Shown: positions 17,201 to 59,116 of the stretch, one piece after another
Position numbering within the stretch: the stretch's first letter is position 1
Layout: every line of letters begins with the position of its first letter
Assembly (NCBI RefSeq): GCF_020283565.1
Contig: NC_060064.1
Coordinates: 10,344,266-10,408,265 of the forward strand
Source: Trifolium pratense
Lineage: Eukaryota > Streptophyta > Magnoliopsida > Fabales > Fabaceae
Direction: 5' to 3'
Length of the DNA: 64,000 nucleotides
Translations under genes and position numbers: made by a program
Notes under the pieces: generated by a model
What the model was told of the DNA's origin: nothing
Seen by the model: only the letters and a program-made list of their open reading frames with translations
Databases searched by the model: none

Positions 17201-20200
17201 CTTTACCAACTCCAGAATTTGATTGTCTTGTATCGAAAGTATATACATTACAAAATTGTTTACAAATAATTATATTTTGTCTCTGTAAATTTGACTTTAT
17301 TTCTGGTGCAGCAATTCTCAAAGCAATTAGAGGATTCCATGGAGAAGTTTGCTCAAGGTGAAATAAAAATCCTTATCAGTACAAATATAGTTGAAAGTGG
17401 GCTTGATATTCAAAATGCAAACACCATCATCATTCAGGATGTTCAACAATTTGGCCTTGCACAGTTGTACCAGGTTTTGTTCTTCCTAATTTAATGTTAT
17501 TTTTTTGGTTTAGATATTGTCATATTTTCTGTTCTTGACTTTAAGCATTGTTTAGAAATGATTATCGTTATTATATTTGCATTGTATTATGTATTGTCTT
17601 AGAATTTAGGATTTGCCTAGCACAGCCCCAACAACTAGCTCAAGGGGGGAAGAACCGACGATTGCTCAAGTTTTATATGAACTACTTTGATTATATCTTT
17701 GTTCGATATAGGATATTGTTACAAACCAGAAAATAGTAATAATAATAAAACAGTAAAAGAAGAGAACAGAGGGAATATTGATCTTTATTGATGAAATGAT
17801 TATGGAATCAATTACAGAGTGAGAGTACAATCTCAGATCTGACACAGAGCAAAGCTCCTATAGGGAGGTTAGTACCCCCTATCCATTCTAGAATATAACT
17901 ACAATCCAAGATGATTCCTCTTCTCATACTAAGACTCCTTATATTGTGGAAGTAAGCTCCCCTCACTCCAATGCAACGTCACCTCAAGTATAACTAACTT
18001 TGCCTGCAATGACTCCTTTGCCCTTTCTTCTAGAATATACCTTCCATGTCACAGGCCCATGTGATCTTTGATGAATCATTTGCTGATGTGGATTTTCTGT
18101 ATTGACTGAAGTCGTAACAACACCTCCTCCTTCAGCTGTAACCTTGTCCTCAAGGTTGAATTTTGGGAATTGGCTTCTTATCACTAATTCATCCTCCCAA
18201 GTTGCCTCTTCCACCGTTTTACCTTTCCAATGCACCAGCACCTGTTTAATGTCTTCTCCTTGCTGCTTCACCAACCTTGCTGCCAGTACAGATTCCGGTT
18301 CAAACACCTCAATTGGCTCCTCCATCAGTTCGGGTAAATCTTTCTCCTCGTGATAATTTCCCACAGCCTTCTTTAACAATGAAACATGAAAAACCGGGTG
18401 GACTCTCGATCCATCAGGTAGCTTCAATTTGTAAGCTACTGCCCCAATTCTCTCTATAATGGGATACAGGCCATAGTAACGTGCAGCTAATTTGGCATTG
18501 ATTCTAGTAACCACCGACTGCTGCCTGTGAGCTCGCAATTTCACAAACACCCATTCTCCACAAACAAAACTCCTATCAATCCTTTTCTTGTCTGCCTGCA
18601 TCTTCATTCTCTCTTGGGCCTTTAGTAATTGACTCTTTAACTGTCGAAGAGCTTCATCTCTGTCTGCTAAGTCCCTTTGCACTGTCTCCACTCTAGTTTC
18701 TCCTTGCACCCATCTGGTTATGACTGGTGGGGGTCTCCCATATGGGCCTTACTATAGTAAGCTATGGGTTTCTTATCCTGCATCAGAATTGCCCCCAATC
18801 CTACTCCCGAGGCATCACATTCTATAACAAACGGTTTGGAAAAATCCGGTAAGGATAACACCGGAGTTGAAGTCAGTTTCTGTTTTAATTCCTCAAACGC
18901 CTTCTGAGCTTCCATTCCCCATTTAAAACTATCTTTCTTTGTGAGATCGGTGAGAGGCCGGGCAATCTTCCCATAGTCCTTTATGAATTTTCTATAATAA
19001 CCAGTAAGGCCCAAAAAACCTCTTACCCCTTTGACATTCTTTGGTTGAGGCCAATTAAGCACACTAATCACTTTACTGGGGTCTACGGCTACCCCTTCAC
19101 ATGTAATCAAATGCCCCAAGTAATCCACTGACTTCTTAGCAAAACTACACTTCTTTTTGTTAACCACCAAACTGTGTTCAGCCAGCAAGCTCAACACCTC
19201 TTCTAAATGTTGCAAGTGGGAATTCCAATCTTTGCTATATATAAGGATATCATCAAAGAAAACTAGCACATGTTTTCTTAATATCGGCCTAAACACATCG
19301 TTCATGAGACTTTGGAAGGTTGAAGGAGCATTCATGAGTCCAAATGGCATCACGAGAAACTCATAATGCCCTTCATGTGTGCGAAAAGCTGTTTTCTTAA
19401 TGTCAATTTCTTTCACCCTTACTTGGTGGTAACCAGATTTCAAGTCCAGCTTAGTAAAACACTTTGCTCCATGTAATTCATCCAGTAATTCTTCAATGAC
19501 AGGTATAGGAAATTTGTCAGGGACTGTTACCTTATTCAACGCTCTATAATCCACACACATCCTCCATGTATTGTCTTTTTTCTTCACCAAAATAACTGGA
19601 CTTGAGAAAGAGCTCGTGCTGTGTCGAATGATACCAGATTCCAACATCTCTTTGACCTGTTTTTCAATCTCATCTTTATGATGGTGAGGATATCGGTATG
19701 GACGAACATTTACGGGGCTTGTCCGTCTATGAGATTGATCGCATGCTCTTTACTTCTTCTAGGTGGTAGGCTCGAAGGAGTTCGGAAAACGCTTGCGTAC
19801 TTGCCTAACACCACCTCCAACTCCCGGTGTTGGCTTTTGGACAAGTCGGATTCACGAGTTGTTTGGAAACCATTCGCGTACTTACCCAACACCACCTCCA
19901 ACTCCCGGTGTGGGCTTTCGGACTTAATGGGATCACAAACCTCCCTAGGCTCGACCCCCTCAATCTTCCACATCTCCCCCTGTTTCGTGGGCTTGGGCCT
20001 GCTAAGAAAATTTTGCAAAGCCATTAATGACTTTCTGCACCCCTCCCTTCCTTTTAACGTGACCCATTTATGCTCTGCCCAAAAACTCATGGATTGTTGC
20101 TTCCAATTTGTAATGGTATCACCAAGTGTCTTGAGCCATTCAATGCCCAACACTACGTCAATTCCCCCTAACTCAAACAAATGTGCATCTGGCCTCAATT

Positions 20201-23200
20201 TGTATTCTCCAATTTCTATTTCTAAATTTCTGCACACCCCTTGTGTAGCTACCTGCACCCCATTGCCCAATTTGACTTTCATTTGAGGAGTACTTTCAAT
20301 GGCCCAATCCATTTGATGGGCTAATTTTTGAGACACAAAATTATGAGTTGCACCACTATCTACCAAGATCAACACCTCCACGCCATGTATTGACCCTTGG
20401 AATTTCATTGTATGATGTGTTTCGAGTGCTATGTGATATAAGTCTAACACACTCATCTCACCCTTCTCCTCTACTTCCTCTTCATCAATTTCTACTGCTA
20501 ACAAGTCACCCTCCTCCCCTCCATTTACTTCATCATCTACCACCAAAATTCTAAGGTGTTTGTCGAGACATTGATGCATAGGGTGGAAAGGTTGTTTACA
20601 TTTAAAGCACAACCCCTTTTTCTTTCTATCCATTAGTTCATTGTAAGAGAGATGTGTAAAACCCCTGTCACGAGGCCCAACACGCTGCCCATCACCTTGG
20701 GTTGATTTGTCATTTCTAGGCCCATTACTTCTTGCACCTCCCCCGGTTCCTCCTTCTCTCCCCTTCACAATCACCCAATCAGACCCATTCCTACTTCCTC
20801 CTCCTTGTGAATTAGAGCGATTGGGCCCAATTCTAGGCCCACGATTGTAGTCCAACCCACTACTTCCCCTCATCTCCTTTTCAACAGCACGTGTCACCTG
20901 TAAAAGCTTAGCTCTACTCATCTCCCCCACCGCTATTAAACTTTGCACTTTACCTCTTATCTCCATTTTTAACCCATGAAGAAAATATCCCAAGAACTGT
21001 TTGTCAGGCAGTCTCGGAATTTGAGCGATTAAATACTCAAATTCGGTGATGTATTCATCCACCGTCCCTTTTTGCTTCAAATCGGTTAATTGTTCGTAAA
21101 CGTCTCCATCCCCGTGACCTCCATAACGTCCTAACAACGCTTCCTTCAATCCCTCCCAATTCAACCCTTCATCTTCACCAATCAGTGAATTGAAGAAGTG
21201 AATCGTAGCTCCCTCCATACATAGCTGTGCCAGACTGACTTTCACCTCCGGCGAAGTCCCCTGAACTCTGAAATAAACCTCCGCCCGCGAAATCCATCCC
21301 GCCGGATCTTCGCCGTTAAACATTGGGAGCTCAACCTTCTTAACGGAACGACGAAACTCTAGTAATGTTTCATCGTTGAGCTGGTTTGAAAACGAACCTT
21401 CCGTCTGCTTCTTCGACCCTTCTGTTCGATGTTTCGAACCTCCTTCACCAGATCCCTTTCCGGCACTATCATTCAACACCACCAACTCTTCATCTCCCTT
21501 CGCAATCGACTTTCCCAGACTTCTCTCCATCATCGCAATGAGTGTAGCCTGACCCTGTTCCATTGACGACAGGGTTGCTTTTACTCCGGCGATTTCTTCT
21601 TCCAACGCAGCGATTCTAGACTCCATTCTTCGAATCAACGTGATTTGGTTCTGTTTAGGTGGCATTCACTTCACTGGTCCCGTCAACGTAATCCGGTAGG
21701 TCGGACCACTTGTTACAAACCAGAAAATAGTAATAATAATAAAACAGTAAAAGAAGAGAACAGAGGGAATATTGATCTTTATTGATGAAATGATTATGGA
21801 ATCAATTACAGAGTGAGAGTACAATCTCAGATCTGACACAGAGCAAAGCTCCTATAGGGAGGTTAGTACCCCCTATCCATTCTAGAATATAACTACAATC
21901 CAAGATGATTCCTCTTCTCATACTAAGACTCCTTATATTGTGGAAGTAAGCTCCCCTCACTCCAATGCAACGTCACCTCAAGTATAACTAACTTTGCCTG
22001 CAATGACTCCTTTGCCCTTTCTTCTAGAATATACCTTCCATGTCACAGGCCCATGTGATCTTTGATGAATCATTTGCTGATGTGGATTTTCTGTATTGAC
22101 TGAAGTCGTAACAGATATCAACATATTTCATCATCTCAGTGAAGATTTCATAGGCATTATTAAATCTATTTAGACTTTATCTCTGTTGAGATATTGTTAT
22201 TTATTGGCTAAATTGCACTTTTGGCCCCCTATGTTTTAGAAAGTTGCAATTTTGGCCCCCTATGTTTCAAAATAGCAGTTTTGGTCCCTTATGTTTATAT
22301 CATTTTGCAAAAGGTCAATTTTGACCAAGTCAATGCTGATGTGATGTGGCAAGTCACTTAAGTGACTCAGTTGTCACATCAGTTTTTTTTTTTGTCAATT
22401 ATAATTAAAAAAAAGGAAAGGAAGAGTCACGATCAAGAACACAACCAGGGTTGGGAAGCATCATATTCTTAACAGACACCAAGGATGCCGATGACGAGAT
22501 GGCGGTAAACGGCGCGAGAAGACAATGATTCTGCCTTACCCCTTCCTCTTTCTTACAATTCTGGTTGTTTTTAACCTTGTCTATTTCATAGAAAGTGGGC
22601 ATGATTCAATTTATTCAATGAGAATATGCAGAATTGATCTGTCTATAAATTGTTTTCTTTCATTGAACAAAAAAAACACAATTGTTATGACTTATGACAT
22701 GGGGAATTTGTAGATTTGATTTGTTTCATGGGTTTAGATGGAGATTGAGACGATATGGAGCTTGAATTTATCATAAGATTAAAAGTGGGAGTAGATAAGA
22801 TTCTGAGTTTTTAAAACAAAGAGGACATGAAGACTTTAAGTATCGAAAGTGGCCACCGCTGTTATGTTGCCAGCGTTCTACACTTGGAACGATCATATGA
22901 TCGTAATAGATAAAATTAAGTGCAAGATCATAGATTAATTTATCAAATTGATAAAGTATTTGAATTTTTTTAATTATAAGTGAAAAAAAACTGACGTGGC
23001 AGCTGACTCACTTAAGTGACTTGCCACATCAGCGTTGACTTGGTCAAAATTGACCTTTTGCAAAGGGAATAAACGTAAGGGGCCAAAACTGCTATTTTAA
23101 AACATAGGGGGTCAAAATTGCAACTTTCTAAAACTTAAGGGGTCAAAAGTGCAATTTAGCCTTATTTATTTTAGTATGATTTGTTAGTATCTTTTGGAGT

Positions 23201-28876: not shown

Positions 28877-31531
28877 TCATATAGGCATTAGTCCCATCTT
28901 TTTAGATGTATTATGGACTTTCTCTCTAGCTAGTCCTTTCATCAAAGGATCCGCTAAATTTTCGTCAGTGCGTACATGATCCACTCTCACAGCACCTTTA
29001 GTGATCATCTCTCTCACTGTGCTGTGCTTACGTCTTATTTGACGTTTCTTGCCATTATAGAATCGATTCTCAATTTTAGCAATAGCCGCGGTACTATCGC
29101 AGTGGATCAACACAGCTGGCATAGGTTTTTCCCACAAGGGAATCTCAGATAGCAAACATCTCAACCAACTTGCTTCTTCACTAGCAGTGGCAAGCGCTAT
29201 CATTTCAGACTCCATAGTGGACTGAGCCAATATAGTCTGTTTCTTTGATTTCCATGACACAGCTCCTCCAGCTATATTGAATATATAGCCACTAGTCGCT
29301 TTGGAATCATCCGACAAGGTGTTCCAATCAGCATCACTGTACCCTTCAAGTACAGGAGGAAATCTCTGATAATGCAATCCAAGATTCATGGTCCTTTTAA
29401 GGTACCTCATGACTCTCTCAATGGCCTGCCAATGCTCATTACTAGGCCTACTAGTAAACCTGCACAACAGTCCGACGACATATGCTATGTCGGGTCTGGT
29501 ACAATCAGTGGCATACCTAAGACTGCCAATGATGCTCGCATATTCAGTTTGTCTTACGCTTTCACCAGTGTTCTTAAACAATTTTACACTGGGATCATAC
29601 GACGTACAAGCAGGTTTACAGTCAAAGTAATTATATTTCTTTAGAATCTTTTCCACATAGTGGGATTGATCTAAAGTTATTCCCTTCTTTGACCTAGTGA
29701 TCTTGATCCCAAGAATCACACTTGCCTCTCCGAGGTCTTTCATATCAAAGTTGTTACACAACAATGATTTCACTGCGTTTACAGCAGTCATGTTTGATCC
29801 AAAGATGAGTAAATCGTCTACATAGAGACATACAATAGTGCAAATGCCATTTTCATATTTATAATAAATGCATTTGTCACTTTCATTCACTTTGAATCCA
29901 TTTGAGATCATCAAATCATCAAACTTTACATGCCATTGTTTTGGCACTTGTTTAAGTCCATACAAGGACTTATCTAACTTACAGACCTTATGTTCTTGTC
30001 CATGTATTACAAATCCTTCAGGTTGTTCCATATAAATTTCTTCGTCTAAGTCACCATTTAAAAAAGCAGTTTTAACATCCATTTGGTGTACTGTTAGATT
30101 ATAAATAGCGGCAATTGAAAATAGTACCCTTATGGATGTTATTCGAGTGACCGGAGAAAAAGTATCGAAGAAATCTATATTTTCTCTTTGTCTAAAACCT
30201 TTGGCCACAAGGCGAGCCTTGTATTTATCAACAGTGCCATCGGGTTTTAGCTTTTTTTTCAAAATCCATTTACAACCAATTGGTTTGCAACCAGGAGGCA
30301 ACTCTACTAAGTGCCAGGTCCCGTTAGATTCAAGAGATTCCATCTCATCATTTATAGCTTCTTGCCATAAATCTGCATCCAAAGATGACAAGGCATCTTG
30401 AAGACTCGTAGGGTCTGCTTCTAAAGAATATACCGAATAATCCGGTCCATAATCTTTAGGTACTCTTACTCTTTTACTTCTTCGAAGTTCAATTTCTTTG
30501 TTGCTCTCAAAATTTCTTATCACAGGAATGTGACTTGATTCGGTGCCCCCACTATTTGTGGATTCATTGCCCCCACTATTTCTTGATTTAAAAGGAAATT
30601 TATCTTCATAGAAATCAGCATCAACCGATTCTATGGTAACTTTAGCATTTAGGTCAAAAAACCTATAAGCCTTACTGTTTGCCGCATAGCCAATGAAGAC
30701 ACACTCATAGGCACGACTAGCGAGTTTAACCCGCTTTGGATCTGGTATCCTGACATAAGCTAGACATCCCCAAGTTCTCAAATAAGACAAGTTAGGTTGT
30801 CTTTTCTTTAATATCTCGTAAGGTGAGACCACATTATTAATAGCCTTGGGGATTCTATTCAGGACATAGCAAACAGTCAATATAATTTCCCCCCACCAGT
30901 GTGAGGCAGCACCAGAGTGGAGCATACTAGCTACAACTAGTTCAGTAAGAGTTCTATTTTTTCTTTCTGCTTTACCATTCATTTCAGGTGAATATGGCGC
31001 AGTCGTTTCGTGTATAATTCCATGTTGTTTATAAAATTCATTGCACAAAATAGAATCATACTCAGTTCCCCTATCACTACGAAGCCTTTTAATTTTCTTA
31101 CTAAATTGATTTTCAATTTCAGTCACAAAAATTTTAATCATATTAAGCGCTTCACTTTTATTCTTTATTAGATATACAACAATATAATCATAGCAATCGT
31201 CGATAAAAGTGATAAAATATCGTTTACCATTTCTAGTTAAAGTTCCATCAAGTTCACATATATCAGAATGAATTAAATCTAATGGTTCAGATTCTCTAAT
31301 AACTGATTTATGTGAAGTTTTAGTTATTTTCGCTTGACTACAAAATTCACATTTTCCTATGTTGTTATTATTATTATTATTATTATTAAACTTTGGAATT
31401 AATCCTACGTTGCTTAGATTAAACATAGATTTTTTACCAACATGACAAAGTCTAGCATGCCAAATATTAAAATCACACACATAGTAAACGGAAGGAGAAA
31501 TTTTATTCAAATCAACATTAAGCTTAAACAT
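28877..31531 (-). CDS. Copia pol: integrase, reverse transcriptase, RNase H
   Basis: 884 aa. In order: the GAG-pre-integrase motif (WHARLCHVGKKSM) near 25-35, with a nearby run of nine Asn from a (tta)n repeat at 31365-31388; integrase core with DLIHSDICEL, DRGTEYDS and APYSPEMNGKAERKNRT carrying the D,D,E triad; RT with MDVKTAFLNGDL and catalytic YVDDLLIFG; RNase H with GYSDADW and STMESEMIAL. Every catalytic motif I checked is present and the frame is open to the stop. It is cut off from the protease frame upstream by a 2-base AT insertion (tatatgcc for tatgcc) near 31545. Without that it would continue as GYATDGMFKLN. Confidence 0.9.
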   Translation of the reverse strand: MFKLNVDLNKISPSVYYVCDFNIWHARLCHVGKKSMFNLSNVGLIPKFNNNNNNNNNIGKCEFCSQAKITKTSHKSVIRESEPLDLIHSDICELDGTLTRNGKRYFITFIDDCYDYIVVYLIKNKSEALNMIKIFVTEIENQFSKKIKRLRSDRGTEYDSILCNEFYKQHGIIHETTAPYSPEMNGKAERKNRTLTELVVASMLHSGAASHWWGEIILTVCYVLNRIPKAINNVVSPYEILKKRQPNLSYLRTWGCLAYVRIPDPKRVKLASRAYECVFIGYAANSKAYRFFDLNAKVTIESVDADFYEDKFPFKSRNSGGNESTNSGGTESSHIPVIRNFESNKEIELRRSKRVRVPKDYGPDYSVYSLEADPTSLQDALSSLDADLWQEAINDEMESLESNGTWHLVELPPGCKPIGCKWILKKKLKPDGTVDKYKARLVAKGFRQRENIDFFDTFSPVTRITSIRVLFSIAAIYNLTVHQMDVKTAFLNGDLDEEIYMEQPEGFVIHGQEHKVCKLDKSLYGLKQVPKQWHVKFDDLMISNGFKVNESDKCIYYKYENGICTIVCLYVDDLLIFGSNMTAVNAVKSLLCNNFDMKDLGEASVILGIKITRSKKGITLDQSHYVEKILKKYNYFDCKPACTSYDPSVKLFKNTGESVRQTEYASIIGSLRYATDCTRPDIAYVVGLLCRFTSRPSNEHWQAIERVMRYLKRTMNLGLHYQRFPPVLEGYSDADWNTLSDDSKATSGYIFNIAGGAVSWKSKKQTILAQSTMESEMIALATASEEASWLRCLLSEIPLWEKPMPAVLIHCDSTAAIAKIENRFYNGKKRQIRRKHSTVREMITKGAVRVDHVRTDENLADPLMKGLAREKVHNTSKKMGLMPI

Positions 31532-31995
31532 GCCATCAGTGGCATATACCCTTTTCCAATAAAAATACCATTCTTAGTGATGGTGTACAAATTTGCCCCA
31601 ATATTCTGATTAAACCTAGCCTTATTAAGAAGAAAACCAGAAACTAAATTCTTTCTCATGTCAGGCACATGCATGACATCCTTCAAGATCAGAGTCTTTC
31701 CATATGTGAACTTCAATTCAACATCCCCAATACCAGCAACATCAGAAGTGTGAGCATTACTCATTTGCACCTTCTTATTTTCAGCAGTCGTGTATGTCTT
31801 AAACATAGCACGTTCAAAACAGACATGGCGTGTAGTGCCAGTATCTATCCACCAACCATCAGTACCACCAATCATATTGATTTCGGTGATCATAGCCACA
31901 TATGGCTCTTCAATCACGTTAACTTGTGCATTAGAGGCAGCAACAAGTTTTTTTTCTGAGTCTACAAGTTTTAGCATAATGACCAGGTCTACCAC
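31507..31995 (-). pseudogene. Copia protease segment, frame-broken at both ends
   Basis: Contains the retropepsin-like active site WWIDTGTTRHVC followed by a beta-rich stretch and DVMHVPDMRKNLVS, typical of copia protease. It is in a third frame, separated from gag by one extra A in an eight-A run near 31955 and from integrase by a 2-base insertion near 31545. The active site reads DTG rather than the more common DSG. Confidence 0.8.
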
Positions 31996-32932
31996 AAGTG
32001 AAACATGTTACACCACTTGCACCATTGTCATTTCTTGGTGGCTGCTGCTGAGCATTATGGGCCCTTGAAGGGTTACCATTCTTATTTCGGTTCATTTGAC
32101 CACGGTTCTGATTCTTTAATTGTTTGCCTTTAGACTTCAGAATCGCGCCGAAATTCTTTTTGTTACCGGTGACCACATAGGCCTTTTCTTCTTCTTTCTG
32201 ATCTTGTCTCCTGGATTCCTCCTCAATTCGGAGGCGGGTAATCAGACTTTCAATAGAAAATTCTTTTGTTTTATGCCAAAGTTGGTTTTTGAATTCTTTC
32301 CAACTCGGGGGCAGTTTGTCAATCATCACTGCAATTTGAAATTGTTCATCAAGAGGCATACCTTCAATTATGATTTCTTGTGCAATTTTCTGGAGCTCAT
32401 GGGATTGCGCCTCCACAGATCTTTCATCCACCATCTGGTACTTCAGGTACCTACTAACAACATACTTCTCCACACCAGCCTCCTCAGTATCATACTTCTT
32501 TTTCAGCGCCTCCCAAACATCTTTAGCACGGTTATATGTACTATAATAGTCATACAAATCATCACAGAGACCATTTATGATATAACCTTTGCATAAATAA
32601 TCATTATGCAACCATATTTGTTGTTCCTTTTTCAGTTGAAGCTCTTGGGCGTTAATTTGTGCTGCAGGATCAATCGAATCCTTTTCTTTTTGTTTTTCAG
32701 CATCAGATTTTTCACCGTTTTCACCATTGATGGTGAGAGTTTGATTTGTTCCTGAACTTGAACCAGCAGAAACAACAAGAGGCATCTCATCACTTAAAAC
32801 GTAGACAACTTTTTTTAAGGTTAAGAAGAAAAACATTTTCTGTTGCCAACGTTTGAAGTGGAGTCTTTCAAACTTAAACGGTCTTTCAGTTGCACCAACA
32901 ACCGAATTGCCAATAACATATTCAGTATCCAT
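31931..32932 (-). CDS. Copia gag
   Basis: 333 aa beginning MDTEYVIGNSVVG. The capsid-like part (FKRWQQKMFFFLTL … ALKKKYDTEEAG … YLKYQMVDERSV) matches the UBN2-type gag of copia elements. Near residue 313 comes one zinc knuckle CFTCGRPGHYAKTC, and a basic stretch rich in Asn/Arg precedes it. The frame then runs into an A8 run and stops early, where loss of one A would join it to the protease. Confidence 0.85.
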   Translation of the reverse strand: MDTEYVIGNSVVGATERPFKFERLHFKRWQQKMFFFLTLKKVVYVLSDEMPLVVSAGSSSGTNQTLTINGENGEKSDAEKQKEKDSIDPAAQINAQELQLKKEQQIWLHNDYLCKGYIINGLCDDLYDYYSTYNRAKDVWEALKKKYDTEEAGVEKYVVSRYLKYQMVDERSVEAQSHELQKIAQEIIIEGMPLDEQFQIAVMIDKLPPSWKEFKNQLWHKTKEFSIESLITRLRIEEESRRQDQKEEEKAYVVTGNKKNFGAILKSKGKQLKNQNRGQMNRNKNGNPSRAHNAQQQPPRNDNGASGVTCFTCGRPGHYAKTCRLRKKTCCCL

Positions 32933-32956
32933 AGCAGTTTTGAAAACGTCTTAAAA

Positions 32957-36655: not shown

Positions 36656-36712
36656 AATTTATTTTGTGTGTCCATTCATCCTCCAAAGTAATTATTTATA
36701 TGTTACAATAAT

Positions 36713-38890
36713 TGTAACATCCCGGATTTTTATCCAAGATATTTCTAAAAACCATATTTAGTTAGAAAATGTGCCGCTATTTTTTTTTTATCAAATGAAA
36801 TAGTATAATAAAATCTGAATTGAAATTCAATTAAAATATAAACTTAATTAAAATGAGTAATAGTTTAAAATTTCCGGCGGAAGAAAATACAACAAGGAAC
36901 TATTTATTACATAAAATTCACAAATTACAAAACCCATTTTTTTTCCCCGTTCGTACGCGCTTCAAGCATCACATCACATTCAATCAAAGCTTTCTCCTTG
37001 AGTACCTAAAATGTTGGTTGTAAGGGTCAATTTCCGGATCCATATTGAATCATACTCACCACAAGAAAATGTTATAAAATAATAACAAAACACTTCACCT
37101 TATAGAAAATATAATTATTAGTTTATTATAAAAACTTTTGGGTGATAAAAGTACACATATACAAACATAGGTAGCATCTTATTGTTCAACGACAGTAATA
37201 AACAAGGCAATATTACACATATTACAAATTGCACGACAAAATTAAATGAAAGAGGAGAAGGTAACGATCACCGCTTTACCCTGGACTAACTATACTTTTT
37301 CTTTAATCTTTTTTTTTGTTGATTCTTCTGTGACCAAGATCATCACTTACTACTATTGTTAATTGTTCCATCTCTACATGAAATGAAATGTAACTAAGAC
37401 CATCCTATATGATATACTAATGATCCGGATAATAAGTCTCATACCAATGAGAGAACCAGCCACACAGGCTCCAAGCCACACAGGCTAAATTAAACCAGCC
37501 ACACAGGCTAAAAAAAAATAAACCAGCCACACAGGCTAAAAATAAACAAGCCACACAGGCTAAAAAAATAAACCAAGCCACAAAGGCTACCTATAGGAAC
37601 ACTGCTATACACATCCTATATGATGCATGAAACTCCACTTCCTTAACAAGACCAACTTGACCTGCGACATAACTAACACTCCCTGTATTTTTATTCACGT
37701 CCCTTAATTTATATTTATTAGATCACACCCACAAACTAATATTCATACGCTTCAAAGAAAAGAAGGAAACCAAAATCTTTAATCATATGAAATAAATAGG
37801 AAATTAACAAACATATATATACACGGCATGCATGACAAGGCATATGCAATAATAAGCAAGCACTAGGCATATGTATAATTAGTCTAATTACTAGAAGCAT
37901 ATATACAAACGAATTTATTTATTTTTATAGAATTAATTCCTTTGGTTTATTTTAAGTGATAAAGGTTCTACCATCATCTCACAACAAATCCCTATGTAGC
38001 ATGAATGTATGGGGAAAAAGCCCTTACCTCAAGTGCTTTCTTCCAATCACTATACTATCTTAAATTCGCAGCTACAGTGCATATACGATATCTCACGCTC
38101 CAAAGGTTCGATTCGACGATCCGACGGTTAACGGAGACAACCCAAGGGAAAATGAAAATGACATAGAATTAGGATTCACAAGGTGAAACAAGGGATAAAA
38201 TAGAGAAGGATGTATAGAAAGACTTACATGAAATATAGAAGAAAATAGATGGTATATAGATACTTGAGAGACTTAAAATATTTTCAATGGACTATAGATG
38301 ATGATCGTGAGACTTGAAAAATCAAGAGAATGGTGTGAGAGTCTCAAAATTTGCGTGAGGCTTCTAATAGAGATTTTTGATATTTTCCTCAATATACGTG
38401 GCTGAGCAATGAACTAATAGAATGGTCTAGATTAAATAGAATAATGGTAGTTAAGAGAAATTACTATAGCTTAATTGCCTTGACCTTATATAAGGAATGG
38501 AAAATAAAAAGGTATGAATTTGGTCTCATCAAGAGAGTAGGAGAATGGTTACTGGCAGCATAATGACGTAATAATTAGTATTCACAACTTAAGAAAGTAA
38601 TTAAGGTGCTAATGAATGATCATGGTTGGCCAATATTCCTTAACTGATACATTGGATCTACGTGTGACATATTTTGAATACTATGTAAGGCAAGGCTTTC
38701 AATCTTTAAGACTAGCTAGCGTGGACTATTCCCTTAAGGTAGCCAAAGTTGATTTGATTATTTCATAATTCAATACTAAAATACTAAAATAATTAAAGAA
38801 TACAAAATAATTAATATCGATATTACTATAGAATTTATTTATCAAATAATAAATTAATAAAGTGCATATATAAAATATTGGGGCGTTACA
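36713..38890 (-). repeat. Outer LTR 1 of the dimeric element
   Basis: 2178 bp, tgtaacatcccgg…ggggcgttaca. No difference from 42844-45021 was seen where I compared them. Contains a minisatellite with ccacacaggct at 37458-37590. Confidence 0.92.
37458..37590. repeat. ccacacaggct minisatellite in LTR 1
   Basis: Seven units, the last with one change (ccacaaaggct), of ccacacaggct separated by A-rich spacers of variable length. The same array appears at 43589-43721 in LTR 3 and, with more units and different spacers, at 40508-40660 in LTR 2. Confidence 0.85.
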
Positions 38891-39770
38891 TTATTACCCC
38901 CTTAAAAGAGTTTCGTCCTCGAAACTAGAAAATAAAAGATTAACTTAAATTTCTCTCATAAAATCAAGCGTGATAAAACCACTTGTTATAAAAGACGAAG
39001 TTAAAGCATTTTGATAGTTATCTATATATTAAAATAAAGTTCTCGGGTCTTACATTCTACCCACCAAATATTTAGTTTTGTCCCCGAAACTAGACAAAAA
39101 ATTTTGAAGTATAATTTTCAAAAACTCTTTATGTAAAGAACTTCTTTAAATAAATTTTGACAAGATAAGAAAGTTTAAGAATAAGGTGAGACATAAAATA
39201 TATTAACGTAGTATTTCTGCTGCGCACTCTGATGCTAAATAAAAGCCAATAACATAACTAGCAAGAAAAATTGCAAAGGTAAAAGTATTTTTGCAGCTTT
39301 AAGAAAAACCTCTAATCTCTAATTCAAAATATGGTAAAAGCATTTTTCTAAAAATCATATTACTTCATAGATATTCTCTACGAATTTACTTATCTTAAAA
39401 TCATAGTAGGAAAAACAATCGTTCACAACTAAAGACCACAAAATTATTCAAAAATATTTCACTCATAAAAATGCCTTATAACATATAGTCATCCTAAAAA
39501 TTCATTCCTTTCAATTAAAATAGTATAAAGACTATTCAATAGAAAATTCATAAAAGCAAACATAGCTTCTAACAATCACAAAATCATTTCCTTTAAACAA
39601 GAAAAATCATACAATCATTTTCATACAATCACCTTACAAGAATCACACAAGAAAGCATCAATCATAAAAATTAAGCACGACCACAAAATCACACATAAAT
39701 CAAGGTATTCGTCATACAAAATCGCTCCCACCCCAAAAATTTGTCCGAGGATTATTGCTCTGATACCAAA
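38891..39770 (-). other. First non-coding interior of the dimeric element
   Basis: Bounded by a polypurine tract on the left (+ coordinates) and a primer site on the right. About 150 bp from the LTR edge, the phrase cttacattctacccaccaaa…gtccccgaaactag echoes the LTR/polypurine boundary gttacattattacccccttaa…gtcctcgaaactag. No open frame of note. Confidence 0.8.
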
Positions 39771-42060
39771 TGTAACATCCCGGATTTTTATCCAAAATAT
39801 TTGTAAAAATTCTGCTTAATTAGAAAATGTGAAGCTACTTTTTTTTATCAAATGAAATAGTATAATAAAATCTGAATTGAAATTCAATTAAAATATAAAC
39901 TTAATTAAAATGAGTAATAGTTTAAAATTTCCAGCGGAAGAAAATACAACAAAGAACTATTTACATAAAATTCTCAATTTACAAAACCCAATTTTTCCCC
40001 CGTTCGTACGCGCTTCATGCATCACATCACATTCAATCAAAGCTTTCTCCTTGAGTACCTAAAATGTTGGTTGTAAGGGTCAATTTCCTGGTCCATATTG
40101 AATCATACTCACCACAAGAAAATGTTATAAAATAATAACAAAACACTTCACCTTATCGAAAATATAATTATTAGTTTATTATAAAAACTTTTGGGTGATA
40201 AGAGTCACATATACAAACATAGGTAGCATCTTATTGTTCAACGGTAGTAATAAACAAGGCAATATTACACATATTACAAATTGCACGACAAAATCAAATG
40301 AAAGAGGAGAAGGTAACGATCACCGCTTTACCCTGGACTATCTATACTTTTTCTTTAATCTTATTTTTTGTTGATTCTTCTGTGACCAAGATCATCACTT
40401 ACTACATTTGCTAATTGTTCCCTCTCTACATGAAATGAAATGTAACTAAGACCATCCTATATGATATACTAATGATCCGGATAATAAGTCTCATACCAAT
40501 GAGAGAACCAGCCACACAGGCTCCAAGCCACACAGGCTAAATTAAACCAGCCACACAGGCTAAAAAAAATAAACCAGCCACACAGGCTAAAAAAAAATAA
40601 ACCAGCCACACAGGCTAAAAGTAAGTTCTGCCACACAGGCTCCTGCCACACAGGCTAAAAGTAAATTCTGCGACAGAGACACTAAAAGACTCTTCTATCC
40701 ACACCCTATATGATGCATGAAACTTCACTTTCTCAAAAGACCAATTTAACCTATGACATAACTTAGTCCTCCAAGTACTTTTATTTACATCCCTTAATTT
40801 ATATTTGTTAGATCACACCCCCGAACTAATGCCCATACGCCACAAAGAAAGGGAGCAAACCATATATACACGACATATGTAAACAAGCACAAGGCATATA
40901 CAATAATTCCACAACATAAGCAAACGCAAGGCATGTACATAATTATTCTAATTACTAGAAGCACATGTATACAAACTGAGTATGCATTTATTTATTTATT
41001 TTTATAAAATTGATACATTTGGTTTATTTTAGTGATAAAGGTTCTACCATTATCTCACAACAAATCCCTATGTAGCATGAATGTATGGGGAAAAAGCCCT
41101 TACCTTGGCCGCTTTACTTCCTAGCGCAACTTTTAAGTCTCAAATTCGCATCGCCCATCCAACTCTCACTACGGATTTTGTTTCGATAGCCCAACAGTTG
41201 AAAAATATGTTCTACGTTTGGTGAAACTAACGAAGTATTGAAGAAGTAGATGCTAGGAAATGATCGATGGAAGTCAAAATATTTTGTATAGACCGAAGAT
41301 GATGATGATGAGTTAAATGATAGCTAGGTTGTATTGTTTCATGTTTGTAAACTAATGCATGGCACTTAGAAAAATAATGATAGAGATTGGCGTTTTTATA
41401 TGGCTAGTTTGACGAAGGAAAATACTTGGGCAATCTCTATGCAAAGATAAAGAAGGAATAATTTGCAATTAAAAGCAATTCAAAGAAATTCAAAGGAAAT
41501 AATTTCACATGTGAGAAAATAATGAATATTTAGTGTCTTGCCTCCCTAATAAATCATTTATAAGAAACGTAGGTGGAGATAAATTGGCAAGAATGGTTTT
41601 TCATCACATGAATAGAATTTAACACGAGAAGACAACAAGAGAAAGTCTCTTTTGGCAAATTAGGATGCTAGCATTTGTAGAAATTAAGAGCTATTAAGAG
41701 AGAGATTAACATTGAATCCAATAAATGAGGGAATGATCAAATAAATAAGGGAATGATGAGCAATTGAATCAAGAATATTATCTTTTAATAACCTTAATTA
41801 ACATTGGCTCGTGAGAGAGAAAATTGGAAATAGAAACAAGTCTTCAAAGTTTGAAATAGAGATAAGTGTGCAAGATTACTTCAATTTTGACTTAACCAAT
41901 AATTTAGCTCATACTTGAAAATAAAACGAATCATTCAATGATTAACGTAAAGTATGAAATTAAAATATATCAAATAGAATATACAATATAAAATAATTAA
42001 TAAATATATTATCAAATAATAAATCAGTAAAATGCGTATATAAAATATTGGGTTGTTACA
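39771..42060 (-). repeat. Middle LTR of the dimeric element, diverged
   Basis: 2290 bp with the same ends as the outer LTRs (tgtaacatcccgg … gttaca). It has many substitutions and indels and a largely different segment from about 41105 to 41990. The ccacacaggct array at 40508-40660 has eight or so units. Confidence 0.9.
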
Positions 42061-42843
42061 TTATTACCCCCTTAAAAGAGTTTCGTCCTCGAAACTAGAA
42101 AATAAAAAAATTAACGTAAATTTCTCTTATAAAATCAAACGTAATAAAACCACTTGTTATAAAAGACGAAGTTAAAGCATTTTGACTCATAAATAAAATA
42201 GTTATCTATATATTAAAATAAATTTCTCGGGTCTTACATTCTACCCACCAAAAATTAGTTTCGTCCCCGAAACTAGACAATAGAAAAAGATTTGAAGTAT
42301 AATTTTCAAAAGCTACTTATATAATATACTTCTTTAAATAAATATCAATAATATAAGAACGTTTAAGAATAGAGTAGAATATCGTTCCGCTGCGCACTCT
42401 GATGTCAAATAAATACGTCATCCAAATTGAACTATTCTCATAAGAATTAAAAACATCATTGTATGAATATAGAATTTTGTTTTAATAGAATAAAAATAAA
42501 AATGAAGCACCTACAAAATAAGAGGGTAGAACAGTAACAATAATAAATATTTTTTTTTCCTTCTAAGAAGTTGAAACGGTTCGCAAAAATAGTGCTTCTT
42601 TTCTAAGTAAAAGGTTTAAAATTCATTCAATACGAAGTTCACATAAACGAAAATATAGTTTCTAACAATCATTCCTTTAAACAAAAGAAATCACACAATT
42701 ATCTCAAACAAATCACACTAAGAAACATCAATTTTAACAAAGTCGAACATAGGTCACAAAACAATCAAAGCATGCGTCATAAAAATAAAACATCGTTCCC
42801 ACCCCAAAAATATTTGTCCGAGGATTATTGCTCTGATACCAAA
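42061..42843 (-). other. Second non-coding interior of the dimeric element
   Basis: 783 bp, related to the first interior at both ends but diverged in the middle. Carries its own primer site and polypurine tract and the same echoed boundary phrase near 42230-42280. Confidence 0.8.
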
Positions 42844-45021
42844 TGTAACATCCCGGATTTTTATCCAAGATATTTCTAAAAACCATATTTAGTTAGAAAA
42901 TGTGCCGCTATTTTTTTTTTATCAAATGAAATAGTATAATAAAATCTGAATTGAAATTCAATTAAAATATAAACTTAATTAAAATGAGTAATAGTTTAAA
43001 ATTTCCGGCGGAAGAAAATACAACAAGGAACTATTTATTACATAAAATTCACAAATTACAAAACCCATTTTTTTTCCCCGTTCGTACGCGCTTCAAGCAT
43101 CACATCACATTCAATCAAAGCTTTCTCCTTGAGTACCTAAAATGTTGGTTGTAAGGGTCAATTTCCGGATCCATATTGAATCATACTCACCACAAGAAAA
43201 TGTTATAAAATAATAACAAAACACTTCACCTTATAGAAAATATAATTATTAGTTTATTATAAAAACTTTTGGGTGATAAAAGTACACATATACAAACATA
43301 GGTAGCATCTTATTGTTCAACGACAGTAATAAACAAGGCAATATTACACATATTACAAATTGCACGACAAAATTAAATGAAAGAGGAGAAGGTAACGATC
43401 ACCGCTTTACCCTGGACTAACTATACTTTTTCTTTAATCTTTTTTTTTGTTGATTCTTCTGTGACCAAGATCATCACTTACTACTATTGTTAATTGTTCC
43501 ATCTCTACATGAAATGAAATGTAACTAAGACCATCCTATATGATATACTAATGATCCGGATAATAAGTCTCATACCAATGAGAGAACCAGCCACACAGGC
43601 TCCAAGCCACACAGGCTAAATTAAACCAGCCACACAGGCTAAAAAAAAATAAACCAGCCACACAGGCTAAAAATAAACAAGCCACACAGGCTAAAAAAAT
43701 AAACCAAGCCACAAAGGCTACCTATAGGAACACTGCTATACACATCCTATATGATGCATGAAACTCCACTTCCTTAACAAGACCAACTTGACCTGCGACA
43801 TAACTAACACTCCCTGTATTTTTATTCACGTCCCTTAATTTATATTTATTAGATCACACCCACAAACTAATATTCATACGCTTCAAAGAAAAGAAGGAAA
43901 CCAAAATCTTTAATCATATGAAATAAATAGGAAATTAACAAACATATATATACACGGCATGCATGACAAGGCATATGCAATAATAAGCAAGCACTAGGCA
44001 TATGTATAATTAGTCTAATTACTAGAAGCATATATACAAACGAATTTATTTATTTTTATAGAATTAATTCCTTTGGTTTATTTTAAGTGATAAAGGTTCT
44101 ACCATCATCTCACAACAAATCCCTATGTAGCATGAATGTATGGGGAAAAAGCCCTTACCTCAAGTGCTTTCTTCCAATCACTATACTATCTTAAATTCGC
44201 AGCTACAGTGCATATACGATATCTCACGCTCCAAAGGTTCGATTCGACGATCCGACGGTTAACGGAGACAACCCAAGGGAAAATGAAAATGACATAGAAT
44301 TAGGATTCACAAGGTGAAACAAGGGATAAAATAGAGAAGGATGTATAGAAAGACTTACATGAAATATAGAAGAAAATAGATGGTATATAGATACTTGAGA
44401 GACTTAAAATATTTTCAATGGACTATAGATGATGATCGTGAGACTTGAAAAATCAAGAGAATGGTGTGAGAGTCTCAAAATTTGCGTGAGGCTTCTAATA
44501 GAGATTTTTGATATTTTCCTCAATATACGTGGCTGAGCAATGAACTAATAGAATGGTCTAGATTAAATAGAATAATGGTAGTTAAGAGAAATTACTATAG
44601 CTTAATTGCCTTGACCTTATATAAGGAATGGAAAATAAAAAGGTATGAATTTGGTCTCATCAAGAGAGTAGGAGAATGGTTACTGGCAGCATAATGACGT
44701 AATAATTAGTATTCACAACTTAAGAAAGTAATTAAGGTGCTAATGAATGATCATGGTTGGCCAATATTCCTTAACTGATACATTGGATCTACGTGTGACA
44801 TATTTTGAATACTATGTAAGGCAAGGCTTTCAATCTTTAAGACTAGCTAGCGTGGACTATTCCCTTAAGGTAGCCAAAGTTGATTTGATTATTTCATAAT
44901 TCAATACTAAAATACTAAAATAATTAAAGAATACAAAATAATTAATATCGATATTACTATAGAATTTATTTATCAAATAATAAATTAATAAAGTGCATAT
45001 ATAAAATATTGGGGCGTTACA
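42844..45021 (-). repeat. Outer LTR 3 of the dimeric element
   Basis: 2178 bp, same length and, as far as I read, same sequence as LTR 1. In element orientation this is the 5' promoter LTR. Confidence 0.92.
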
Positions 45022-45074
45022 ATAATAATGGCTCCCAATAATAATGAAAGAAAGAAAAGAAAAAAAAAGACAAA

Positions 45075-45469: not shown

Positions 45470-47350
<1,881 letters not shown>

Positions 47351-58213: not shown

Positions 58214-59116
58214 ATGGGGAGCTTATTATATCAAGCACTATCATCAACAGCACTTATCTCATTAGGTCTTTACCATCTAATCTTCACAACCCTAAACTAT
58301 CTCAAATCCCCACACACCTACACATCCAAACCCTACCACCCACTCCCTTCAACAAACCACCCTCGTCTCCGCCCAATTCAACTCTACTTCATAATCTTCT
58401 CTCTCTCCATCGCCATCTTTCACCACCTCATCCTCGCCACCGATTCCGATCCTCTAATCAAAGGCTCAACCCCCGTCCACCGTCTCACTTCTCTCCAATC
58501 CGCCTCCCTCCTTTTCCTCTTCTTAATTCTCTCAATCTCTCTCCTCCTCCCTCTCCGTCTCCCTCACGACTTCTCTTTCTCTCTCCTCTCTCTTCTCTTC
58601 CTCCTCCATTCTTCTCTCCAAACCTCTCTCTCTTCTCTCCAAACCTCTTCCCTCGAAGCCAAATGCGATTCAATCTCATCAACTCTCTCCGCACTCTCTT
58701 CCTTCCTCTGTTTAATCCTCGCTTGTTTCCCTCGTCTTTACCCCGCTGATGCTGCTCTCGCCTCTACCTTTTGTTTACGTGGACTCTGGGCGCTTCAAAC
58801 CGGTTTAATTCTTTACGCTGAACCGTTTATTCCGGAAGGATGTCATCGCCTTCTTGATGTTGTTAATGGTGTTGAAGGTTCGACTCAATGTGATCTTGAC
58901 GAGTCTAAGTTTCGTGCTCTAGCGATTCTTGATCTAGCTTTTGTTGTTCATGTTATGTTGGTTATGATTATTGTTTTGGTTACTTATGCTCTTGTTAATG
59001 CTACTGTTGGTGGTGTTAGAAGAGTTGGATCTTATGAAGCTTTGCCTACTTCTTCGGCTACGCCTACCGATTCTAATCATATTCAGATGAAAGCTTTGGC
59101 TGGAACACAGGCTTGA
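58214..59116 (+). CDS. DUF716 / TMEM45-like multi-pass membrane protein
   Basis: 300 aa, single exon. Begins MGSLLYQALSSTALISLGLYHL. Hydrophobic segments lie at about 7-30, 52-75 (LYFIIFSLSIAIFHHLILA), 92-115 (SASLLFLFLILSISLLLPLR), 121-140, 158-175 (LSSFLCLILACFPRL), 187-205 and 238-262 (VVHVMLVMIIVLVTYALVN), giving about seven membrane spans. The order, the paired His in the second span and the later LRGLWALQTGLILYAEPFIPEGCH motif match the plant DUF716 family, related to TMEM45. The cell role is unknown; in some plants members are linked to virus or pathogen response. The coding sequence is rich in ctc/tct up to about 58700 and in gttt/gatt afterwards, a common drift in intronless plant genes. 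A frame on the other strand (58485-58694) is a shadow. Confidence 0.9.
   Translation: MGSLLYQALSSTALISLGLYHLIFTTLNYLKSPHTYTSKPYHPLPSTNHPRLRPIQLYFIIFSLSIAIFHHLILATDSDPLIKGSTPVHRLTSLQSASLLFLFLILSISLLLPLRLPHDFSFSLLSLLFLLHSSLQTSLSSLQTSSLEAKCDSISSTLSALSSFLCLILACFPRLYPADAALASTFCLRGLWALQTGLILYAEPFIPEGCHRLLDVVNGVEGSTQCDLDESKFRALAILDLAFVVHVMLVMIIVLVTYALVNATVGGVRRVGSYEALPTSSATPTDSNHIQMKALAGTQA

What the first reader, a model, noticed from the sequence alone, without database searches (positions are those of the whole stretch)
36713..45021. Three-LTR retrotransposon that appears to have moved as a dimer
Seen: LTR-interior-LTR-interior-LTR, one 5-bp duplication (ataat) only at the outer edges, two primer sites and two polypurine tracts in the same orientation, outer LTRs of equal length (2178 bp) with no difference noticed, middle LTR 2290 bp and strongly diverged. 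Established: reverse transcription copies both outer LTRs from one RNA, which makes them the same, while an internal LTR is carried along unchanged. Inference: a transcript of a tandem dimer was packaged, reverse-transcribed and integrated as a single unit. Unequal crossing-over between separate insertions would not by itself make the outer two identical and the middle one different.
Basis: partly seen in the sequence, partly recalled or inferred. Interest (0 to 1): 0.78.

Follow-up and report, generated by a model that had tools for sequence, protein, structure and literature searches.

The report
Heterodimeric three-LTR retrotransposon in a legume
Two related but distinct non-coding retrotransposons are fused through a shared repeat and appear to have jumped into a legume chromosome as one piece, an already described kind of event that here can help to show how such tandem elements arise.

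Summary
On the minus strand, 36713-45021 reads LTR-interior-LTR-interior-LTR with one 5-bp duplication (ATAAT) outside. The outer LTRs are identical (2178/2178). The middle LTR (2290 bp) has a mostly unrelated first ~900 bp and a homologous remainder (85-99% over the last ~850 bp). No coding capacity was found.

Searches of the window's own 413.6-Mb genome show two different subfamilies. Interior 2 (880/880) and outer-LTR positions 1-1454 (one mismatch) equal a three-LTR element on C5; interior 1 and the middle U3 belong to other subfamilies. Four other three-LTR loci of the family have their own outer duplications; a further array has lost an interior.

Best reading: a heterodimeric cDNA made during reverse transcription and integrated once, as in the "template-switching complexes" of Sabot and Schulman (2007). 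Insertion of a circle into an older element at the LTR/primer boundary is a weaker rival that I could not exclude; the donor of the upstream unit was not found.

It is a new member of a known kind, useful because sister-chromatid exchange alone cannot make it.

The parts
36708..36712 (.). target-site duplication ATAAT, low-coordinate side
36713..38890 (-). 3' outer LTR, 2178 bp, identical to the other outer LTR; X type (L009) to LTR position 1454, L011-like after that (switch at about 37413-37436)
38891..38907 (-). polypurine tract of interior 2
38891..39770 (-). interior 2, 880 bp, non-coding, identical to both interiors of L009
39046..39065 (-). upstream PPT-like sequence followed by LTR-like start TGTAAGACC, interior 2
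39757..39768 (-). primer-binding site TGGTATCAGAGC of interior 2
39771..42060 (-). middle LTR, 2290 bp; Y-type U3 at the high-coordinate end; last about 230-250 bases (39771 to about 40000-40018) of L009 type
42061..42077 (-). polypurine tract of interior 1
42061..42843 (-). interior 1, 783 bp, non-coding, 97% to L030 and 96% to L031
42230..42249 (-). upstream PPT-like sequence followed by TGTAAGACC, interior 1
42830..42841 (-). primer-binding site of interior 1
42844..45021 (-). 5' outer LTR, 2178 bp (switch from X type to L011-like at about 43544-43567)
45022..45026 (.). target-site duplication ATAAT, high-coordinate side

Best explanation
This is a non-autonomous LTR retrotransposon insertion whose cDNA was a heterodimer. 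During reverse transcription the minus strand copied one element (X: U3, interior 2, primer site, middle-LTR tail), did not stop there, and passed by LTR homology to the 3' end of a second, related RNA (Y: U3 of the middle LTR, interior 1). The normal strand transfers made both outer LTRs identical, and an integrase supplied by another element inserted the 8.3-kb product once, giving ATAAT on both sides. Shown: the anatomy, the identity of the outer LTRs, the different subfamilies of the two halves, other dimers in the genome. Inferred: the strand-transfer steps, two co-packaged RNAs in place of one dimeric transcript, and the helper element.
For: Outer LTRs 0/2178 different, middle unrelated in U3. 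One outer duplication. Interior 2 is 880/880 and outer LTR 1-1454 one mismatch to L009; the adjoining last 230 bp of the middle LTR has no substitution against the middle LTR of L009, so one X stretch runs from the middle-LTR tail through interior 2 into the 3' LTR. Switch points at outer-LTR 1455 and about 1926-1944 equivalent lie past the U3 modules. The same U3 is found with different downstream halves in other copies, as expected if strands often transfer between co-packaged RNAs; Sanchez et al. 2017 report that for Onsen (passages seen). Four other three-LTR loci have their own outer duplications.
Against: No locus with the whole Y unit was found, and two of the planned searches did not complete. 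The outer-LTR tail is closest to L011, an X-type array, while the strict two-RNA model needs Y to bring it. The middle tail is only slightly closer to L009 than to L018, a Y-type U3 element (412-407 against 400 bits). In the stretch that both LTRs should have from Y, they differ at about a dozen positions in roughly 480 bp. R was not mapped; if the AATAAA about 415 bp from the LTR end is the one used, the second switch lies outside R.
Confidence: 0.55

Rival explanations
1. A transcript that reads through a pre-existing tandem dimer (chromosomal, or a one-LTR circle transcribed more than once round) was packaged and reverse-transcribed, the middle LTR being carried along.
For: Three-LTR copies exist as possible sources, among them the X homodimer L009 with the same interior. 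Circle transcription and weak terminators are proposed in Morales-Diaz et al. 2025.
Against: No X-Y dimer that could be the source was found. The fusion of unlike halves needs an earlier recombination. An AATAAA-loss idea for read-through does not hold across the copies examined.
Confidence: 0.22
2. A Y circle or cDNA recombined into an existing X monomer at the LTR/primer-site boundary; identical outer LTRs and ATAAT are those of the older monomer.
For: Integrase-independent insertion, reported to give tandems and to occur at PBS and PPT regions (review PMC12786077, passages). Unrecombined parents are imaginable: L011 has an X U3 with a tail like the outer LTR, L018 a Y U3 with a tail like the middle LTR.
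Against: The crossover must lie in one 57-bp tract, of 943 bp in exact shared tracts of 20 bp or more. The middle tail would match L009 without substitution by coincidence.
Confidence: 0.15
3. Unequal crossing-over: between two neighbouring insertions, or between sister chromatids at one monomer.
For: It is the commoner source of complex elements in the Triticeae sample of PMC1950507 (20 recombinant against 2 template-switching complexes). It could explain the homodimers L009, C1, L031 and L032.
Against: Neighbouring insertions would give different outer LTRs and no shared duplication. Sister exchange would give three like LTRs and two like interiors; here the interiors are 77% alike and the middle U3 is mostly unrelated.
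Confidence: 0.04

Closest known systems
Template-switching complexes (Sabot and Schulman 2007, PMC1950507, read in full)
   Same: Three LTRs, two cores, one outer 5-bp duplication, outer LTRs alike; their model allows RNAs from two slightly different elements
   Different: Their examples are coding families (Angela, Squiq, Opie; the coding nature of the last two is recalled). Here the interiors are non-coding and the middle U3 is mostly unrelated to the outer U3
Tandem LTR-retrotransposons of rice and other plants (Morales-Diaz et al. 2025, PMC11899658, parts 1-4 of 6 seen)
   Same: Shared internal LTR, outer duplications, in rice often Tekay-type gypsy elements
   Different: Their two detailed loci have like halves (94% and 99% identical interiors; LTRs 85-89% and 99%); here the interiors are 77% alike
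Cassandra tandem arrays (Kalendar et al. 2020, PMC7215508, part 1 of 8 and passages)
   Same: Non-autonomous, same primer site TGGTATCAGAGC, short arrays of about three LTRs
   Different: Cassandra is a TRIM with 5S sequence in its LTRs; LTRs here are about 2.2 kb, and no 5S search was made

Membership tests
Template-switching complex (Sabot and Schulman 2007) | an internal LTR between two core sequences | tested here: met
Template-switching complex (Sabot and Schulman 2007) | target-site duplication at the outer edges | tested here: met
   ATAAT
Template-switching complex (Sabot and Schulman 2007) | high similarity of the outermost LTRs | tested here: met
   2178/2178
Template-switching complex (Sabot and Schulman 2007) | LTRs chimeric between the two parents | tested here: inconclusive
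   switch points seen against L009, but the outer tail is nearest to L011 and the Y parent was not found
Template-switching complex (Sabot and Schulman 2007) | two co-packaged RNAs shown in the particle | not testable with these tools
   needs virus-like particles
Recombination complex of neighbouring insertions | outer LTRs differ and no flanking duplication | tested here: not met
Non-autonomous, LARD-like LTR retrotransposon | LTRs, primer site and PPT without coding capacity | tested here: met
   longest listed ORF inside is 60 aa; no stop-to-stop frame of 150 aa or more inside; motifs
TRIM | short LTRs, almost no internal domain | tested here: not met
   LTRs of 2178-2290 bp and interiors of 783-880 bp; definition from PMC7215508
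Ty3/gypsy (Tekay-like) | reverse transcriptase/integrase phylogeny | not testable with these tools
   the element encodes none; only the look of primer site, PPT and TG..CA ends suggests it (recalled)

The most novel reading that the evidence does not exclude
This retrotransposon family routinely transposes as dimers and reshuffles its modules: co-packaged RNAs of different subfamilies are joined during reverse transcription, strand transfers swap U3 modules, and two alternative polypurine tracts give two integration-competent left ends, so dimer formation is a regular mode of replication and not an accident.
Probability: 0.25. Interest if true: 0.65.

Novelty: new member of a known kind. Interest (0 to 1): 0.48.

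Why it matters
Whether three-LTR tandems are born during reverse transcription or by later DNA recombination is open: the 2025 survey says both mechanisms seem possible and that more research is needed (PMC11899658). Tandems with like halves cannot tell. This locus speaks against sister-chromatid exchange because its halves come from different subfamilies, and a near-identical relative of one half is in the same genome. A family with several independent dimers gives a practical system to test the mechanism.

Tried and rejected
Rejected: chance (identical 2178-bp repeats, exact ends, paired motifs). Rejected: nested insertion (no duplication at the inner edges, same orientation, shared LTR). 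Rejected for this locus: unequal crossing-over alone. Kept as rivals: a dimer transcript, and recombination of a circle into an older element.

Led nowhere: the exact 28-base primer-site pattern in genome contigs and viral contigs, 0 hits; a paper search on one-LTR circles and read-through, nothing on target in the 20 listed of 31; a search on the middle LTR, nothing new in the 15 listed of 373. C5:15955500-15960500 (L033) was checked as a possible Y parent and is not one. L034, L035 and L036 share the middle U3 at 97-99% but have other downstream halves. Two literature searches on extra or duplicated polypurine tracts: one returned no paper, the other 9, whose titles and abstract starts show nothing on a plant element with two integration starts (none was opened). 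Never answered: genome searches with interior 2 and with the private segment 40620-41105, so a Y donor may exist unseen. No empty-site test was possible: the tool holds no relatives of this genome. A read-through idea based on missing AATAAA was not borne out across the 9 LTRs compared.
Full report
WHAT IS THERE. The window lies at C6:10344266-10408265 of a 413.6-Mb genome in 90 contigs. A DUF716 protein encoded at 58214-59113 is closest, apart from its own entry, to proteins of chickpea (90%), pea (89%) and barrel medic (86%), so the host is probably a cool-season legume; I did not identify the species. The element occupies 36713-45021 on the minus strand: 5' LTR 42844-45021, interior 1 42061-42843 (783 bp), middle LTR 39771-42060 (2290 bp), interior 2 38891-39770 (880 bp), 3' LTR 36713-38890. 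The outer LTRs are identical, 2178 of 2178. ATAAT flanks the outer edges only; for flanks of this composition the chance of a 5/5 match is 0.4-0.5%. Each interior starts TTTGGTATCAGAGC and ends TTTTAAGGGGGTAATAA. No coding capacity was found: the only listed ORF of 60 aa or more inside is one of 60 aa.

HOW THE MIDDLE DIFFERS. Against the outer LTR, the middle LTR keeps about 52 similar bases at its start, is mostly unrelated for the next 800-900, resumes homology at GGTAAGGGC (outer position 868), runs at 43-94% per 100-column block to about position 1330, and at 85-99% after that. The two interiors are 77% identical where aligned; their first 32 and last 47 bases are identical.

WHERE THE HALVES COME FROM. 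Eight short loci came with the first genome search; twenty stretches were fetched next, then eight more in five calls. Interior 2 is identical (880/880) to both interiors of L009, a three-LTR element at C5:44528671-44536918. The outer LTR matches the first LTR of L009 with one mismatch in positions 1-1454, then diverges abruptly. Its last 724 bp match best, at 99%, the three LTRs of L011 on C5:15.29M. The last 235 bp of the middle LTR, next to interior 2, match the three L009 LTRs best (412, 408, 407 bits), then L018 (400, twice), then nothing above 352. Over the last 230 bp there is no substitution against the middle LTR of L009, only extra bases in a run of A, and four substitutions plus one extra base against L018. 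Interior 1 matches L030 (97%, C7, a monomer) and L031 (96%, C3, a dimer); no other scored hit covers the whole of interior 1 above 74%. The middle U3 is 97-99% identical to those of L016, L018, L034 and L035, and L036 shares most of it at 98%, but each of these has a different downstream half. In the same way the outer U3 is shared at about 99% or more by L009, L011 and L012, which differ downstream. No locus with the complete Y unit was found.

OTHER DIMERS. The interior-1 search scored 40 of 218 first-look candidates: 35 loci, of which 5 have two interiors. All five were looked at and are three-LTR structures with a duplication at the outer edges (contig strand unless noted): this window (ATAAT); L009 (ATATA; outer LTRs 2 differences in 2162; interiors identical); C1:46725822-46733548 (CACTC; one outer LTR internally deleted; the middle and the other outer LTR identical over 2482); L031, C3:17376016-17385352 (GTGAG; one difference in 2595 between the outer LTRs); L032, C7:12169-19410 (CCTGT in element orientation; outer LTRs identical over 1881; long left end, see below). 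L011 is an LTR-10 bp-LTR-interior-LTR array with CTCAG. An automatic duplication test on 21 fetched loci gave an exact pair in 14: the four dimers other than the window, L011, monomers L018, L025, L026, L027 and L030, and single-LTR loci L012, L015, L016 and L028 (the A-rich pairs at L015 and L028 could be chance). It gave none for L013, L014, L019, L020, L022, L023 and L024. Flanks printed later show pairs by eye at the single-LTR loci L033 (AGACG), L034 (AAAGG), L035 (AAGAA) and L036 (TCCCT). The fetched set was chosen partly because of tandem spacing, so only 5 of 35 is usable as a rate, and that is itself a sample of the best-scoring hits, truncated copies included.

HOW IT MOST LIKELY WORKS. 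Shown: a single outer duplication, identical outer LTRs, a foreign middle unit. These fit one reverse-transcription and integration event. Inferred: the minus strand ran through X (U3, interior 2, primer site, LTR tail) and crossed by LTR homology to the 3' end of Y. The two switch points seen against L009 are at about 1455 of the outer LTR and 2043-2061 of the middle LTR, equivalent to about 1926-1944 of the outer. Both lie downstream of the U3 modules and upstream of an AATAAA 196 bp from the outer LTR end; R itself was not mapped, and another AATAAA 415 bp from the end would leave the second switch outside R. Sanchez et al. 2017 found most LTR recombinants of Onsen consistent with the first template switch in R (passages seen).

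WHAT SPEAKS AGAINST. The strict two-RNA model needs the Y RNA to bring the outer tail, yet that tail is closest to L011, which carries the X-type U3. In the stretch that both LTRs should then share from Y they differ at about a dozen positions in roughly 480 bp, so Y's own LTRs would have to be diverged. The middle LTR could instead be an unrecombined Y LTR of the L018 kind, an X monomer having received a Y circle at the LTR/primer boundary. That rival needs the crossover in one 57-bp tract out of 943 bp of exact shared tracts and a coincidental match of the middle tail to L009. I therefore give single-unit integration about 0.77 (0.55 co-packaged RNAs, 0.22 dimeric transcript) and the circle rival 0.15. 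An assembly error is unlikely, as the middle unit differs from both neighbours, but reads were not available.

COMPARISON WITH WHAT IS KNOWN. Sabot and Schulman 2007 (read in full) describe this class, with the same diagnostic features and a model that allows heterodimers. Morales-Diaz et al. 2025 (parts 1-4 of 6 seen) find tandems in all the plant genomes they ran and leave the mechanism open. The kind is known. What this locus adds is unlike halves with a near-identical relative of one half in the same genome, in a family with several independent dimers. I make no claim that such a heterodimer is unreported; I made two searches for tandem or three-LTR papers and opened five papers.

Noticed in passing
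window 39046-39065 and 42230-42249; L011, L016, L032, L033, L019: A second PPT-like sequence followed by an LTR-like start (TGTAAGACC) lies about 150-175 bp upstream of the real LTR start. Loci L011, L016, L032 and L033 begin exactly there with duplications CTCAG, GCTGA, CCTGT and AGACG (L019 4 of 5 bases), which suggests that integration can use either of two left ends.
   Followed up: partly
L011 3873-3882: Two LTRs are joined by only 10 bp (TTTGGTATAA: eight bases of the primer-site side and two or three of the PPT side), like a two-LTR junction, next to a complete interior and LTR; an interior deletion with ends so close to both LTRs would be odd.
   Followed up: partly
L009, L011, L012, L016, L018, L034, L035, L036: Nearly identical U3 modules are joined to different downstream LTR halves in different copies, a sign of frequent recombination in this family.
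   Followed up: partly
window 36702-36718: The sequence just outside the low-coordinate duplication is GTTACA, the same six bases as the LTR end, so the left edge reads GTTACA-ATAAT-TGTAAC; probably chance.
   Followed up: no
window 17984-21665: A minus-strand Ty3-type element: gag, protease, reverse transcriptase, part of RNase H, and a C-terminal SH3 and chromodomain; no integrase core was found in the three frames scanned.
   Followed up: no
window 28877-32950: A minus-strand Ty1/copia-type element with gag, zinc knuckle, integrase core and reverse transcriptase, read in several frames.
   Followed up: no
window 46516-46636, 47013-47348 and 37471-37589: A pure AT repeat of about 60 copies, a 115-bp tandem repeat, and a short minisatellite (unit around GCCTGTGTGGCT on the minus strand) found in all three LTRs of the element.
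   Followed up: no
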